From an uncultured Nitrospira sp. (GTDB lineage: Bacteria > Nitrospirota > Nitrospiria > Nitrospirales > Nitrospiraceae), in assembly GCA_946479785.1 (NCBI GenBank), contig CAMLHQ010000068.1:1-16988 (forward strand): DNA of 16,988 nt. The letters are read 5' to 3'. A model generated the notes under the pieces. That model saw only the letters and a program-made list of their open reading frames with translations, was not told the DNA's origin and made no database searches. The position numbers and the translations under genes are program-made. The number at the start of each line of letters is the position of its first letter. The first letter of the stretch is position 1. This document shows positions 3,490 through 14,982 of the stretch, piece by piece.

Positions 3490-5133
3490 ATGAGGTCCAC
3501 CTACATCATCGGATTCGCCGCGGTTGTATTGCTCGCCGGTGCCGCCCCGAGCTCGGGCACAGAGCCGACGGTGGCGCCCGCGCCGCCGAGCCTTTCTGAC
3601 ACGGTCCCTCTCTACACGAACCTCGGCTCCCATCACAAACGCATCTCCACTCGAGTCCCGGCCACACAGCAGTACTTCGACCAGGGCCTGCGATTCGTCT
3701 ACGGATTCAATCACGCGGAAGCGATCCGCTCGTTCACGCGCGCCGCAGAACTCGATCCCACCTGCGCCATGTGCTACTGGGGGATCGCACTCGCCTATGG
3801 CCCGCACGTCAACGCTCCAATGAACGCGGCGAGCGGAGTCGCCGCGTATGCGGCGGCGCAGAAAGCGCTGGCGCTCAAGTCTCACGCCACGACGCCCGAG
3901 CGTGTGTACATCGAGGCGCTCGCGCAGCGCTACGAGTCGGTCCCGCCGACCGATCGTGCCCGGTTGGACACCTTGTACTCGCGCGCGATGGAGCGGGTCG
4001 CCAACACCTATGCTGACGACCTCGACGCTGCGACCCTGTATGCCGAATCGCTGATGGACCTCCGTCCGTGGAACTACTGGCGACCCGACGGTACTCCCTA
4101 CCCCGACACCAAGGAAATCGTACGCCAGCTCCGGAGAGTCATCTCGCGCAACCCGAACCACCCCGGCGCGTGCCATTACTACATCCACGCGGTCGAAGCA
4201 GTGAACCCGCAGGCTGCGGTGCCGTGCGCCGAGCGGCTCGCTCGGCTCATGCCGGGCGAAGGGCACATGGTCCACATGCCCGCACACATCTATATCCGCG
4301 TCGGACGGTGGAACGACGCCATGCAGGCCAACCAACACGCCATCCACACCGACGAGGTGTTCATCGAAGGGCAGCACCCAATGGGCGTCTATCCGCTCGC
4401 CTACTACCCGCACAACATCCACTTCCTCGCTTTCGCCTCTACGATGGCAGGCCGCGGTGCGCAGGCGATTGAGGCGTCCAATACACTCACCTCCAAGGTG
4501 AACCTCGAGGCCGCACGCCAGGTCGGGATGCTGCAGGAGATGCTGCCGTACCACGCGCTCACGCTCACGACGTTCGGAAAATGGGACGAGGTGCTGGCCG
4601 AACCGCTTCCGCCGGAGGATATCCGCTTCTCGTACGCCGTTGCGCACTACGCCCGCGGGGTGGCATACGCCGCCAAGGGACAGTGGGCGGAGGCGCAAGC
4701 CGCGCTCGACACGGTGACGGCGATCAACGTCGCGACGCCCGAAGGTGCCGATGGCAAGACGGCGCTCTCGATCGCCGTGCACGCCCTGTCCGGCGAGATC
4801 GCCACCCGCCGCGGCGACCTCGACGCGGGCATCAACCACTTCCGGGAGGCGGCCAAGATCGAGGACGCGGGACTCTACTTCGAACCGCCCAAGTGGTACT
4901 ACCCGATTCGGCACTCGCTCGGCGCCGCGCTGTTGAAGGCGGGACAACATGCCGAGGCCGAGAAGGTGTATCGCGAGGATCTCCGGCGCTTCCCCGAGAA
5001 CGGCTGGTCTCTGTTTGGGCTCGCACAGGCGCTCCGGGCGCAAGGAAAGAACAGCGAAGCGGCCGCAGCGGAAGCGCGTTTCCGCCGAGCCTGGGCAAGC
5101 ACAGACGTGACGCTGACGGCATCGAGGTTCTAG
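3490..5133 (+). CDS. Secreted tetratricopeptide-repeat protein
   Basis: This 547-residue protein begins with a signal peptide (about residues 1-23, MRSTYIIGFAAVVLLAG core), so it is exported. TPR-like helical pairs start near residue 60 (FDQGLRFVYGFNHAEAIRSF) and recur to the C-terminus (LGAALLKAGQHAEAEKVYRE, GWSLFGLAQALRAQGK). Conserved-looking insertions include CAMCYWG (Cys92, Cys95), GACHYYIHAVEAV and GHMVHMPAHIYIRVGRW. Their density of His and Cys suggests a metal site or structural role, which is unproven. The start is set by TAAGGAGG, 6 nt before ATG 3490. An upstream in-frame GTG at 3445 lies inside the hairpin and is less likely. Base composition is clearly more GC-rich than the neighbours. 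The family is widespread but uncharacterised as far as I know. A scaffold for periplasmic redox proteins would fit the neighbours. Confidence 0.88.
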   Translation: MRSTYIIGFAAVVLLAGAAPSSGTEPTVAPAPPSLSDTVPLYTNLGSHHKRISTRVPATQQYFDQGLRFVYGFNHAEAIRSFTRAAELDPTCAMCYWGIALAYGPHVNAPMNAASGVAAYAAAQKALALKSHATTPERVYIEALAQRYESVPPTDRARLDTLYSRAMERVANTYADDLDAATLYAESLMDLRPWNYWRPDGTPYPDTKEIVRQLRRVISRNPNHPGACHYYIHAVEAVNPQAAVPCAERLARLMPGEGHMVHMPAHIYIRVGRWNDAMQANQHAIHTDEVFIEGQHPMGVYPLAYYPHNIHFLAFASTMAGRGAQAIEASNTLTSKVNLEAARQVGMLQEMLPYHALTLTTFGKWDEVLAEPLPPEDIRFSYAVAHYARGVAYAAKGQWAEAQAALDTVTAINVATPEGADGKTALSIAVHALSGEIATRRGDLDAGINHFREAAKIEDAGLYFEPPKWYYPIRHSLGAALLKAGQHAEAEKVYREDLRRFPENGWSLFGLAQALRAQGKNSEAAAAEARFRRAWASTDVTLTASRF

Positions 5134-8646: not shown

Positions 8647-9186
8647 ATGGAGGCTCGGAATCAACGGGACCAATGGTTGGAAAACTCCATCCGCTATTCG
8701 GTGGCGAATGCGGATGCCTCCAGGCCCGGTGATGCCGCCGTGCTCGCCAAGTTGTCAGAAGTCTTATTCGTCGAAACGCTGCGACGCTACATCGCGCTGC
8801 TCCCGCGAGAACAAATCGGGTGGCTGGCAGGTGTCCGCGACCCGGAAGTCGGGAAGGCCTTGGCCCTGCTGCATCGTCAACCGGCCGATCCGTGGACGAT
8901 CGCCGGTCTCGCGACAGAGGTCGGAACATCGCGTTCCGTGCTGGCCGGGCGTTTCCGGCGTTACCTCTCAGAGACCCCCATTGCCTACCTCACGCGCTGG
9001 CGGCTTCAGCTCGGCGCCCAACTGCTCACCTCCACAAGCAGTGGCGTAGCGCAGATCGCAGCTGAGGTTGGCTATGAGTCGGAGCCGTCCTTTAACCGCG
9101 CCTTCAAACGCAAGTTCGGCCTCCCCCCGGCCCGATTCCGCACTCGATCGCAATCATCCCGCAGCAGCGCGGTCCGCCACGCATAA
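8647..9186 (+). pseudogene. N-terminally truncated AraC-family regulator
   Basis: The 179 residues match the C-terminal half of cupin-type AraC regulators. They contain the pre-HTH segment (AVLAKLSEVLFVETLRRYI, RDPEVGKALALLH) and both helix-turn-helix units: WTIAGLATEVGTSRSVLAGRF (83-103) and VAQIAAEVGYESEPSFNRAF (134-153), with KFGLPPARFR after the second. Full-length relatives are about 300 residues with an N-terminal cupin sensor, which is missing here. An in-frame TAA lies at 8632-8634 and no ribosome site precedes the ATG, so this is probably a remnant, though a constitutive DNA-binding fragment cannot be excluded. Loss may relate to the adjacent 17-bp repeat. Confidence 0.75.
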
Positions 9187-11770: not shown

Positions 11771-12394
11771 TCAGCCGGTTCTGATCATTTTCTCAGGATA
11801 AAAATACTTCTCGAATCCTTCTCTCGCCTTCCGGTAGTCGTTGTCCGTTGCATACTTCAGTCGGTAATTGAACCGACAACTCTGGTCTTTCTCGTATTCA
11901 TAGACGTCTTGAAGGAACGGCACAATCTGGTCTAGGTCCGACGTCTGATCCCCCTTCGCCAAATTCACTCTCAAATCGGAAGGAATATCTCCAATGACTT
12001 GCATGGTCTCCACACCACTTTGCTCGCTGACTTCGATCAACGTATTACCGTTCTTCTGACAGAAGGCATACCCTCGTTTTAAGCTTTCAATGGCTTCTTG
12101 AAAGCCTTCTTTCGTTGAACCCTTCGCGCCCACCATGACCTTCAATTCATTCACAAACTGCGTCATGTCGTTCAGCTGTTGTTCTAAGTCACTGTTCTTC
12201 TCCGTCGCCACATCGAGTCTGGCTTGAAGGTGTGTGTCTACACGCTGGGGTGCGTCAACGATTTGCTGCGTCTCTTGTCCCCCACCCTCCACCGTGTCCG
12301 TCACGTAGACCATCATCGCCGCAAAGAAGAGCAGCAGCATCACTTCGACAAGTGACAAGCCAAGTGCCCAACCTGAACGCGAGTCACTTTCCAT
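11771..12394 (-). CDS. MotB/ExbD-like single-pass protein, novel C-terminus
   Basis: The 207-residue product has a short N-terminal tail and one membrane helix (~10-31: ALGLSLVEVMLLLFFAAMMV). Acidic Glu17 lies near its start, where MotB, ExbD, TolR and ZorB carry the ion-translocating Asp. A coiled coil follows (~55-90), then a domain with Cys112 and Cys173 and a distinctive end (CRFNYRLKYATDNDYRKA, FEKYFYPEKM). No OmpA/peptidoglycan-binding domain is visible. If the topology is MotB-like, the bulk is periplasmic and the two Cys could pair. The ATG overlaps the end of the upstream gene by 11 nt, so the two are translationally coupled and probably form one complex. I do not recognise the C-terminal domain. 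Confidence 0.82.
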   Translation of the reverse strand: MESDSRSGWALGLSLVEVMLLLFFAAMMVYVTDTVEGGGQETQQIVDAPQRVDTHLQARLDVATEKNSDLEQQLNDMTQFVNELKVMVGAKGSTKEGFQEAIESLKRGYAFCQKNGNTLIEVSEQSGVETMQVIGDIPSDLRVNLAKGDQTSDLDQIVPFLQDVYEYEKDQSCRFNYRLKYATDNDYRKAREGFEKYFYPEKMIRTG

Positions 12395-13631
12395 CGAAGG
12401 AATGCTCCTCGGTCACTCTTTCCTTCAAGAAGAACATAACTCCCCGCATGGTCGATTCGATGGCTTTGCTCGCCTCGAGACTTGACTGTATGGCCTTCTG
12501 CACATTCAGAACCCCATTCCTGACATCGGCCCTTAGCGAATTTGACGACAAGTCCCTCAGCTCTGTTTCCAATGTCGACAATTGTGTCGAGACCTTTGCA
12601 AATGCCGATCGTAATGACTGCAAGCTATTGAGCTGACTATCCAGTTCTGTACGACTATTCTCCAACGCCGTGGTCATTGTGACAAATTCGTCGGTTCGCT
12701 CTTTGATCGTACTGGACAAATCATTTACGGCGACTCCAATTCGCTTCGCGGCCTCTGATCCATCCAGCGAATTCCCAAACCGGGTCACGGTTTCGACCGC
12801 TTGCATCAAACTCTTCTCCAGTGTTTGTACTGCCTCTTCAACGTCATCTCCCCGCCTCCCTAACGCAGCAATGAGTTTGGCCACTTCTGTTGTGAGCATT
12901 TCCTGGGGAATCTGTATGGCGGCGAGCCTGCCAAGAATATCTTTTAACGAAGATTCAAAGCCTGCACTCATCGTCGTAGTCATCGTCCGATGTTGCTCGG
13001 TGATCGTTTCTCGAACATCTTCCAGTGACCGCACAAGATCCCGGAGCGTGCCACCGAGCTCACTGGCTGCCCGTTCTCTGAAGGAGGCGATTTCCATCGT
13101 CGCTTCGCTGATCTGCTGGGTGAGAGCCGCAACGCGGCGATCAATCGTCTCTTGGGCATGAACAAGCCGATCTGGAAGCGTGTCTTCAAATTGGATGACC
13201 AACAGTCGAAGAAGCATTCCGGAAAATGTCGCGACCAGCGCATAGCCAAATGTCGTGAGCACTGCGTCAGCGGTAAGTTTAGGAGCCGGCCAGACCACGA
13301 AGGTCGCAATCAGGGCAAAGAGTGCCCAGAGAAAACCCATATAATAGAGCGAGTCTGCAAATTGGATGGTGTTCTTCTTTCTCAGAGAGTAACCATAGGC
13401 AGCATAGGCAATGAGAAGTCCAATCAGGCCCACCATGGTAAAAGTTGGGGAAAATTGCGAAATCGTTGAGTAGACGAGCGCGACAATACCCGTCGCTGTC
13501 GCACACAACCACGCTGTTCCAAGTTTTATACGATCCTGCAGCGTGGAAGGGTCGCTGGATAGCCCGCTCTCTTCAAGCTCATCAGGCTCGGGCATTGGAC
13601 GTTCGAAGGATATGGTTGTAAGCCGTTGCAT
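12384..13631 (-). CDS. Four-helix membrane protein with long coiled-coil tail (MotA/ZorA-like)
   Basis: The 415-residue protein has a ~35-residue cytoplasmic start and four predicted membrane helices (~36-58, 62-82, 94-114, 122-147). The last two (FADSLYYMGFLWALFALIAT and LTTFGYALVATFSGMLLRLL) have the small-residue pattern of TolQ/ExbB/MotA helices. From ~155 to ~395 it is almost continuous amphipathic helix, recalling the long tail of ZorA. With the overlapping downstream gene it looks like an ion-driven stator pair. The start is the ATG at 13631, with GAGGAGGG 5 nt upstream; an ATG 63 nt further up is open but lacks such a site. Base composition is visibly less GC-rich than neighbours. An alternative is a structural membrane coiled-coil protein without ion flow. 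Confidence 0.8.
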   Translation of the reverse strand: MQRLTTISFERPMPEPDELEESGLSSDPSTLQDRIKLGTAWLCATATGIVALVYSTISQFSPTFTMVGLIGLLIAYAAYGYSLRKKNTIQFADSLYYMGFLWALFALIATFVVWPAPKLTADAVLTTFGYALVATFSGMLLRLLVIQFEDTLPDRLVHAQETIDRRVAALTQQISEATMEIASFRERAASELGGTLRDLVRSLEDVRETITEQHRTMTTTMSAGFESSLKDILGRLAAIQIPQEMLTTEVAKLIAALGRRGDDVEEAVQTLEKSLMQAVETVTRFGNSLDGSEAAKRIGVAVNDLSSTIKERTDEFVTMTTALENSRTELDSQLNSLQSLRSAFAKVSTQLSTLETELRDLSSNSLRADVRNGVLNVQKAIQSSLEASKAIESTMRGVMFFLKERVTEEHSFDGK

Positions 13632-13696: not shown

Positions 13697-13714
13697 ACTG
13701 GGGATTCCCCTAGT
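13697..13714. promoter_or_regulatory. Near-perfect palindrome upstream of the stator-like operon
   Basis: ACTGGGGATTCCCCTAGT pairs ACT/AGT and GGGGA/TCCCC around one central base. It lies 66-83 nt upstream of the ATG at 13631, where an operator would be expected. Which protein binds is unknown. Confidence 0.4.
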
Positions 13715-13738
13715 GCCGGATATCCTTGATATTATTTT

Positions 13739-13755
13739 GCATGTCCCGGCATGTC
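13739..13755. promoter_or_regulatory. GCATGTC direct repeats, 10-bp period
   Basis: GCATGTCCCGGCATGTC holds two identical 7-mers spaced one DNA turn apart, about 110-125 nt upstream of the minus-strand operon. It may be an activator site together with the palindrome at 13697. Confidence 0.35.
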
Positions 13756-13787
13756 GCCGCGCCCTTCCCAAACAGAAGGAATAAGAA

Positions 13788-13822
13788 GCGGGGACATTCT
13801 TAATTTCCCGCGCGAAATTTTA
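13788..13822 (+). repeat. REP-like palindrome of a second type
   Basis: GCGGGGACATTCTTAATTT leads into the inverted repeat AATTTC (13802-13807) / GAAATT (13814-13819) around CCGCGC. The GGGGAC head is shared with the other REP-like units, but the rest differs. Confidence 0.5.
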
Positions 13823-14379
13823 GTCCTTACAGACGCGCAGGCCCAGGGAGTCTCCTGGTGCGACCGTGCAAAGGTGTCCACTGACTGATGGGCAAAGAGT
13901 ACAGCAACACATGTTCCGCGTGACTGCGTGAAGCTGGATCGAGATGCAACGCATCAATAAATCCCATGTAAATCTCATGGAGTGACCACCTCTAGATTAT
14001 TTGGGTACGTCGAGACCACCGTGGCATCGTAGTTGCTCATACGTATCACCACGTGTCGAGGGACCACTGGGGTCCCCTCCCATCATGAGAAGAGTGAGAT
14101 CGATGTCTCAAGGCTCTTGAAGGAATGCAGATGGCGCTGGTTCGGATGTGGCGACGATTGCGGAGTTTTCTGCGATGGAAGAAAGCCACCACCCCCATCC
14201 TGCGCAACACTGACACGGGGGAGTTGATCTCCTTCGCCAGCTACACCGCGCTCCCGACAGGGAAGTGGAGGCTTCGTCGTCCACTCACGCTGCCCGAGAG
14301 TACGCTGCCGCTCTTCCTCGAAGCTGCACTCATTCCTGGGGGCCTCGCTGGGCGGAAAAGCGCGGAGGCCTCCAACCCG

Positions 14380-14527
14380 CCAGGCCATCAGATCGGACTC
14401 CAGCACAATATAGGAGCTCAGCTCCCTCACTCGCCCCCGCAGTAGTCCATTTGGTTTTTCCCTTCGCCAGTATTCCCTTCCACTCCAACTTCCCAATCCG
14501 TTCCTCGGCCAGCGCCTTGCTCACCAT
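14380..14527 (-). pseudogene. Possible frame-broken type II antitoxin remnant
   Basis: One minus-strand frame gives MVSKALAEERIGKLEWKG then ILAKGKTKW. The next frame continues NGLLRGRVRELSSYIVLESD. Joined by a frameshift near 14450, this resembles the C-terminal half of Phd/VapB-type antitoxins, where a short linker is followed by a segment ending in a VLE(S/D)R-like motif. No intact toxin follows. This is pattern resemblance only, and weak. Confidence 0.25.
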
Positions 14528-14689
14528 CCCACCCTCCCACCCTCACCGTCCTTTTAATCGCCTCCGGAGTAATAGATACTCCTCCGACTTTCCGCGAAGG
14601 TCGGTTTGGGACTTTGGAACTTCCCCGCGTTCGCCTTTGGACTGGAATCCGCTTTGCCCTTCGGAGGGCTCTGGTTCTGTCTCCGTGGA

Positions 14690-14877
14690 CGTCTAGTGCA
14701 CTTGCTCGGGACGCTGGCATTCGGAGTCCTGATGCTCGCGATCCAAACCTATGTCTTCTTCGGGCGCCCCCATCCTTGGACCGAGCAGCAGCGTTAACGG
14801 CGCTCATGGCATATGCCGTATTTGCCACTGCGATTTGGTGGCTACAGGATCGTCAGCCTGTCACGGCAGCCGTCTGA
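14690..14877 (+). pseudogene. Frameshifted membrane-protein remnant
   Basis: One frame reads LLGTLAFGVLMLAIQTYVFF then GRPHPWTEQQ and stops at 14795-14797. The +1-shifted frame continues ALTALMAYAVFATAIWWL then QDRQPVTAAV to a stop at 14877. Together they give two hydrophobic helices joined by a plausible loop, as expected from the 3' end of a membrane protein broken by one indel near 14785-14797. The parent family is not recognised and the 5' part is gone or unrecognisable. Confidence 0.4.
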
Positions 14878-14919
14878 CTCGCGCTCATAGCCAACTGGTC
14901 GGGAAAATGAAACAGCATC

Positions 14920-14943
14920 GAACCCTTTCACGGCGCGTGGCGT
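14920..14943 (+). repeat. Dispersed GCGTGGCG repeat, copy 4
   Basis: GAACCCTTTCACGGCGCGTG followed by GCGT matches copies 1 to 3. Its right edge runs straight into a perfect TATAAT. Confidence 0.55.
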
Positions 14944-14949
14944 TATAAT
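14944..14949 (+). promoter_or_regulatory. TATAAT -10 element before ICMT-like gene
   Basis: A perfect TATAAT lies 33 nt before the TTG start at 14983, giving a leader of about 27 nt. No good -35 is present at 16-18 nt spacing; that space is filled by the repeat. The element may be weak or activator-dependent. Confidence 0.4.
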
Positions 14950-14982
14950 GTTACGGATGGCTCGCCCTACAGGTGGTCTCAA

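What the first reader, a model, noticed from the sequence alone, without database searches (positions are those of the whole stretch)
11771..13631. Orphan stator-like membrane pair with a giant coiled-coil tail and no OmpA domain
Two overlapping minus-strand genes encode a four-helix protein with a ~240-residue coiled-coil tail and a single-pass partner with Glu17 in its membrane helix. The plan matches ion-driven MotA/B, ExbB/D, TolQ/R and ZorA/B complexes. It differs in having Glu instead of Asp, no peptidoglycan-binding OmpA domain, an unfamiliar Cys-containing C-terminal domain and no nuclease or Ton partner beside it. The genes are less GC-rich than neighbours and next to degraded DNA, as for acquired defence or envelope systems. 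This is the strongest candidate here for an undescribed system.
Basis: partly seen in the sequence, partly recalled or inferred. Interest (0 to 1): 0.72.

Follow-up and report, generated by a model that had tools for sequence, protein, structure and literature searches.

The report
Mobile stator-like membrane gene pair
A bacterial gene pair found only here and there among Nitrospira looks like a stripped-down relative of ion-driven envelope motors, and leads to an apparently undescribed four-gene membrane operon, often near a nuclease gene, on plasmids of other bacteria.

Summary

Corrections: residue 17 is Glu in 125 and Gln in 58 of 183 rows, with at least four switches, so a titratable acid is not essential family-wide. 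The pore pattern is T-S/T-T (sodium type) in the operon but mostly A-T-T or A-A-T here. The pair is patchy (7 of 175 family genomes), without g1, g2 or nuclease. Likely an accessory envelope sensor/stator; defence is inferred, not shown. My searches found no description.

The parts
12384..13631 (-). Gene A, 415 aa: four-helix membrane protein with long helical cytoplasmic tail (MotA/TolQ-like)
11771..12394 (-). Gene B, 207 aa: single-pass protein, coil, TolR-like periplasmic domain
12384..12394 (-). 11-nt overlap of A stop and B start (translational coupling inferred)
   Evidence: overlap of 11 or 14 nt in 8 of 8 loci
13293..13355 (-). A helix 3 (residues 93-113), aligned with TolQ TM2 / MotA TM3; Ala103 at the TolQ T145 / MotA A180 position (PomA T158 by inference)
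13191..13271 (-). A helix 4 (residues 121-147), aligned with TolQ TM3 / MotA TM4; Thr135 at the MotA T209 / TolQ T178 position, Gly138 and Arg142 invariant in 128 of 128
12402..13190 (-). A helical tail, residues 148-410
   Evidence: hydrophobic periodicity near 3.5-3.65 in residues 150-240 and 295-360, 0 of 300 shuffles; not significant in 240-300 and 360-410
12296..12361 (-). B membrane helix, residues 12-33
12344..12346 (-). B Glu17 codon (GAA), aligned with the Asp of ExbD/TolR; Glu or Gln in the family
12074..12247 (-). B helical coil and linker, residues 50-107
11774..12073 (-). B C-terminal domain, residues 108-207, TolR-like; Cys112 (12059-12061) and Cys173 (11876-11878) invariant, disulfide inferred

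Best explanation
A and B form a stator-type inner-membrane complex of the MotAB/TolQR/ZorAB kind (by analogy five A around two B). It is an accessory, patchily inherited two-gene offshoot of the stator core of a mobile four-gene operon (g1-g2-A-B, often with an SNase-type nuclease nearby). B's TolR-like domain (with an inferred disulfide), on its coil, senses or grips the periplasm or cell wall. Its membrane helix passes a change of position or of ion occupancy to the A ring, and A's long tail carries the signal or movement into the cytoplasm, most likely as envelope or phage/plasmid surveillance. Shown here: pairing, homology to the operon's A and B, patchiness, purifying selection, Glu/Gln alternation. 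Inferred: 5:2 assembly, topology, sensing, signalling, defence. Members with Glu17 could still conduct protons (Ala103/Thr135 as in MotA); members with Gln17 probably act without ion-driven rotation.
Confidence: 0.5

Rival explanations
1. An ordinary proton-driven envelope motor (Tol/Exb-like) for an unknown outer-membrane task: ion flow past residue 17 turns or shifts the A ring and B transmits force; nothing to do with defence.
For: TolR-like domain, TolQ as best Foldseek match, MotA-like Ala103/Thr135 pattern in the window.
Against: Gln at position 17 in 58 of 183 rows with at least four switches; no shared TolA/TonB-like neighbour recognised in the ORFs of the 8 loci (not searched with models); patchy (7 of 175), while true ExbB/TolQ-type and ExbD/TolR-type genes are present in 4 of 4 pair-bearing genomes searched.
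Confidence: 0.2
2. A decoupled stator: the complex no longer uses ions at all and is a structural or mechanosensory transmembrane coupler from periplasm to cytoplasm.
For: Strict Glu-or-Gln at position 17, never Asp or a hydrophobic residue (183 of 183); the TM3 Thr of the operon family is replaced by Ala in 122 of 128; in the sodium-driven Vibrio stator PomB D24N, PomA T158A and T186A lose ion transport (PMC6677748, passages).
Against: Thr135 kept in 127 of 128 and Glu kept in two thirds of rows; Ala at the TM3 place is also normal in proton-driven stators (PMC10374538 passage).
Confidence: 0.2
3. Not a stator relative: an unrelated four-helix membrane protein with a coiled-coil partner, matching by membrane composition alone.
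For: The direct matches to MotA/TolQ/TolR are mostly below usual significance.
Against: Two partner genes independently rank partner subunits TolQ and TolR first; 3 of 5 operon B homologues scanned match OmpA; TM4 ALVATFSGMLL against MotA AMVGTFLGILL.
Confidence: 0.1

Closest known systems
Four-gene operon g1-g2-A-B found here (R. johnstonii pRL11, Microvirga ossetica, S. fredii, P. yeei, Tistrella mobilis, N. japonica, three IMG/VR contigs); no description found in my searches
   Same: Homologous A membrane core and B N-terminus, A directly followed by B, Glu in B helix (9 of 9)
   Different: Window pair lacks g1, g2 and nuclease; 3 of 5 operon B proteins scanned match OmpA, window B does not; operon A has the T-S/T-T pore pattern (9 of 9)
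Zorya ZorA/ZorB (type II above all)
   Same: Compact membrane core, about 270-280 residue cytoplasmic tail, single-pass partner, patchy distribution
   Different: No OmpA/PG domain match, Glu or Gln instead of Asp, no Zorya effector recognised beside it, no PADLOC match for the membrane core
TolQ/TolR and ExbB/ExbD
   Same: Best structural matches of A and of B's end domain; residue 17 under the ExbD Asp in the profile alignment
   Different: Almost no cytoplasmic loop between helices 2 and 3, long C-terminal tail, extra coil and cysteines in B, no TolA/TonB partner recognised, Pfam cut-offs not reached
MotA/MotB, PomA/PomB
   Same: Four helices; TM4 resembles MotA around T209; TM3 Ala as in MotA A180
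   Different: No large cytoplasmic loop, no OmpA match in window B, Gln at the ion site in many members
GldL/GldM
   Same: Stator-type pair whose A subunit has a long cytoplasmic tail (PMC9389320, passages)
   Different: Not compared by sequence or structure here

Membership tests
MotA/TolQ/ExbB (PF01618) | Score above Pfam's gathering cut-off | tested here: not met
   best 13.4 bits against 22.9 (L025); the window's own protein did not match
MotA/TolQ/ExbB (PF01618) | Pore pair of helices with conserved Thr/Gly (TolQ T178 / MotA T209) | tested here: met
   T135 127 of 128, G138 128 of 128; alignment; statistical support mixed across members
MotA/TolQ/ExbB (PF01618) | Large cytoplasmic helical part between the first helices and the pore pair | tested here: not met
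   only about 10 residues between helices 2 and 3
ExbD/TolR (PF02472) | Ion-carrying Asp in the single helix | tested here: not met
   Glu 125, Gln 58 of 183
ExbD/TolR (PF02472) | Periplasmic TolR fold | tested here: inconclusive
MotB/ZorB | OmpA-type peptidoglycan domain | tested here: not met
   no PF00691 row for window B at E<=1
Zorya | ZorA/ZorB models of PADLOC or NCBIfam | tested here: not met
   only a ZorA match in the coil region, 19.4 bits; no ZorA among the 25 of 29 NCBIfam rows shown for A; membrane core none
Zorya | ZorC/D, ZorE or ZorF/G effector gene beside AB | tested here: inconclusive
   none recognised among the ORFs of the 8 loci, but they were not scanned with those models
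Stator 5:2 complexes | Five A around two B, ion conduction, rotation | not testable with these tools
   no complex prediction or assay available
Four-gene operon family (this work) | Homologous A core and B N-terminus in the order A-B | tested here: met
Four-gene operon family (this work) | g1 and g2 upstream | tested here: not met
   no g1 or g2 match in the window or L020-L026; no match at E<=0.001 with the N. japonica proteins in 6 of 7 pair-bearing genomes, the seventh (N. japonica) holding the separate operon

The most novel reading that the evidence does not exclude
The four-gene operon with its nuclease is an unrecognised mobile surveillance system (anti-phage or anti-plasmid) built on a sodium-type stator, and the Nitrospira pair is a natural series of the same stator losing its ion site (Thr to Ala in A, Glu to Gln in B), showing that a rotary-type stator can be turned into a non-driven transmembrane sensor.
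Probability: 0.25. Interest if true: 0.85.

Novelty: new variant of a known kind. Interest (0 to 1): 0.6.

Why it matters
[quoted passage not shown] Closely related pairs differing at that place make the question 'must a stator conduct?' directly testable.

Tried and rejected
Family libraries: no family for A or B in Pfam, NCBIfam or PADLOC beyond coiled-coil or below-cut-off matches, nor for the N. japonica operon's four proteins; sequence search of solved structures gave nothing relevant. hhalign of A or B against Nitrospira MotA/ExbB, ExbD and MotB alignments: nothing. B helix against ExbD: not above shuffles. The motif scan of B's end domain found a different register from the one I infer from the fold alignment, and beat shuffles only in part (37, 2, 177 and 62 of 2000), so the exact TolR correspondence is left open. 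VIA-align on the A model: helical-bundle matches only, no TolQ listed. A column in A that follows Glu/Gln in B: several differ, as clades do, and none looks to me like an ionic compensation (21 Glu and 11 Gln pairs, 24 of the 32 matched only by equal contig length). Phage records, plasmids and IMG/VR for window B or its alignment: no match; phage records for the R. johnstonii operon A: no match; plasmids for the N. japonica operon B: no match. Eight of the 14 places that start at profile position 115 or later (G033, G107, G015, G441, G225, G363, G122, G185) were treated as coil matches and dropped, as was G263. Repeats around the pair: only short two-copy matches. Rooting of the Glu/Gln tree was not attempted; midpoint rooting puts Gln clades at the base, while the operon relatives have Glu, so the direction is unresolved. 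Only 5 of the 24 plasmid records were opened.

Full report
WHAT IS THERE. Two minus-strand genes overlap by 11 nt: A (12384-13631, 415 aa) and B (11771-12394, 207 aa). A has four predicted membrane helices and a helical tail of about 260 residues (the model is poor, mean pLDDT 53.8). B has one helix with Glu17, a coil and a C-terminal domain modelled at pLDDT about 76-86 between residues 121 and 190. GC is 0.48-0.54 over the pair, lower than most of the window though not uniquely so.

HOW WIDE AND HOW PATCHY. Protein searches gave 362 homologues of B and 190 of A at E<=0.001, of which the best 120 of each were listed; a second B search with divergent members gave 379 and listed 120. Where an organism is named it is Nitrospira, Nitrospiraceae or Nitrospirota, except one row labelled Deltaproteobacteria and one Petrachloros. 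In whole genomes B occurs in 7 of 175 of the family, 4 of 295 drawn from the phylum and 1 of 79 of one genus; A's core in 7 of 235 of the order. In the family set the 7 genomes with B all have A next to it; an eighth A match (G263) covers coil only. Window B has no match in phage or plasmid records, nor its alignment in IMG/VR. No neighbour is shared by most of the 8 loci compared (5 to 19 kb each): a TPMT-like methyltransferase lies within the fetched stretch of 3 (L020, L021, L025), the close pair L022/L023 share several genes, and a few other genes are shared by two or three loci. So this is a self-contained accessory cassette under purifying selection (dN/dS 0.26 for A and 0.38 for B, window against L024; 0.11 and 0.20 for L022/L023).

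RESIDUE 17. In 183 B rows (176 listed proteins plus 7 loci; at least three loci repeat listed proteins) it is Glu in 125 and Gln in 58, never anything else. A tree built without that column needs at least four changes; besides deep Gln clades, Gln recurs inside the Glu clade (P0091, L024/P0108, P0120). In flagellar stators the equivalent aspartate is described as universally conserved (PMC10374538, passages), and PomB D24N loses ion transport (PMC6677748, passages); in Zorya, ZorB D24 is crucial for defence (PMC11890865, passages and section 6 part 1). A titratable acid is therefore not essential across this family.

THE BRIDGE. A search with A's membrane core alone found a second, distant copy in N. 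japonica at E 1.5e-6. It lies in a four-gene operon: g1 (475 aa, membrane), g2 (273 aa, one helix plus a domain with a conserved LLD(V/L)TDP-like stretch), A-like (403 aa) and B-like (286 aa) (membrane helices of g1 and g2 read by eye). tblastn with the A-like protein found 24 plasmid records: Rhizobium 12, Paracoccus 6, Sinorhizobium 3, Microvirga 2, Tistrella 1; 11 of the 24 are typed conjugative. I opened 5 of the 24, and three IMG/VR contigs. All 9 distant loci (these 8 and N. japonica) hold g1-g2-A-B in that order, and 6 of 9 have an SNase-type nuclease gene nearby (L066, L068, L069, L071, L088, L089; none found for L070 or L072; L087 ends just after B). A profile of five operon A proteins, none from the pair family, finds five Nitrospira pairs at 4.7e-20 to 2.3e-13. 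A nine-sequence profile of the membrane core, without the coil, gives the window 43.9 bits (0 of 1000 shuffles; 0 of 1000 also for the five other loci tested), and B's first 42 residues 18.3 bits (0 of 1000), with residue 17 on the operon's invariant Glu (9 of 9); of the seven other B loci tested, L021, L025 and L026 are weaker (3, 25 and 13 of 1000), the rest 0. Of five operon B proteins scanned, three match the OmpA family, two above its cut-off and one at 27.1 against 27.2; Microvirga and N. japonica do not, though the Microvirga protein is 48% identical to the R. johnstonii one over 147 residues of its end part. TM helix, coil and OmpA domain is the architecture of MotB and ZorB, which strengthens the stator reading. 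The N. japonica operon B lacks an OmpA match; its end domain resembles window B's (6.5 bits, 0 of 1000; three OmpA-type B proteins do not) and it too has two cysteines. g1 and g2 were not found in 6 of 7 pair-bearing genomes, so the pair seems to work without them.

ION PATH. At the three places that line a sodium site of PomA (T158, T185, T186; PMC10374538 passages) the operon A proteins read T, S or T, T in 9 of 9, the sodium-type pattern. The Nitrospira pair reads A-T-T in 80, A-A-T in 32 (the window among them) and other patterns in 16 of 128. PMC10374538 states that proton-driven units have Ala at the first two places, which the window matches but the family majority does not wholly. The PomA positions are carried over through MotA A180 and T209, an equivalence I recall; only E. 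coli sequences were aligned here. Inference: the operon stator may be sodium-type; Glu17 pairs may be proton-type; Gln17 pairs may be undriven.

MECHANISM PROPOSED. Shown: pair, overlap of the reading frames, homology to the operon core, patchiness, Glu/Gln alternation. From known families: five A around two B, B's domain in the periplasm, A's tail in the cytoplasm. Inferred: B's TolR-like domain (Cys112-Cys173 disulfide) feels or grips the envelope, and A's tail relays this inside, as suggested for ZorA/ZorB (PMC11890865, passages). The likeliest task is surveillance of the envelope or of incoming phage or plasmid; no test of this was possible.

NOVELTY. Pfam, NCBIfam and PADLOC do not name A, B, g1 or g2. 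My literature searches (open-licence PMC only) showed no description of the pair or the operon; from these I read passages of PMC12505986 (and its section 14), PMC9389320 and PMC11890865 (and section 6 part 1), and passages of PMC6677748 and PMC10374538. Other listed papers were seen as listings only. PMC12505986 notes that generic stator relatives carry many extra domains of unknown function (section 14), so a new variant of a known kind is the fair class.

LIMITS. Both models are of single chains from shallow alignments; the window's organism is inferred to be a Nitrospira relative from its closest named protein matches; function is untested.

Noticed in passing
L066 4467-8777 (with SNase gene 3623-4309), L068 5697-10852, L069 5653-11212, L070 5677-9981, L071 5676-11568, L072, L087, L088, L089: Conserved four-gene membrane operon g1-g2-A-B, in 6 of 9 loci with an SNase-type gene nearby, on plasmids and mobile contigs; nearby genes include CHAT and Phd (L071), HipA (L068), recombinase and integrase (L069).
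   Followed up: partly
L040 and L054 (G324, about 3150996-3152738): The genome taken as N. moscoviensis also carries a separate Zorya-like pair: a 656-aa MotA-type protein with a long tail and a 240-aa MotB-type protein with Asp in its helix; not checked with Zorya models.
   Followed up: no
L020 9762-10370: The N. moscoviensis B ends five residues earlier than its relatives, at a TGA after FYPEK.
   Followed up: no
window 8647-9186: AraC-type gene of 179 aa, about 77% identical over 162 residues to longer ORFs in L022 (392 aa) and L023 (302 aa, cut by the locus end); possibly a shortened copy.
   Followed up: no
window 13700-14980: About 1.3 kb without a convincing gene, no RNA family and no tRNA; its origin is unclear.
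   Followed up: partly
P0091, L024/P0108, P0120: Glu/Gln switches at B residue 17 inside the Glu clade: natural near-neighbour pairs for testing.
   Followed up: partly
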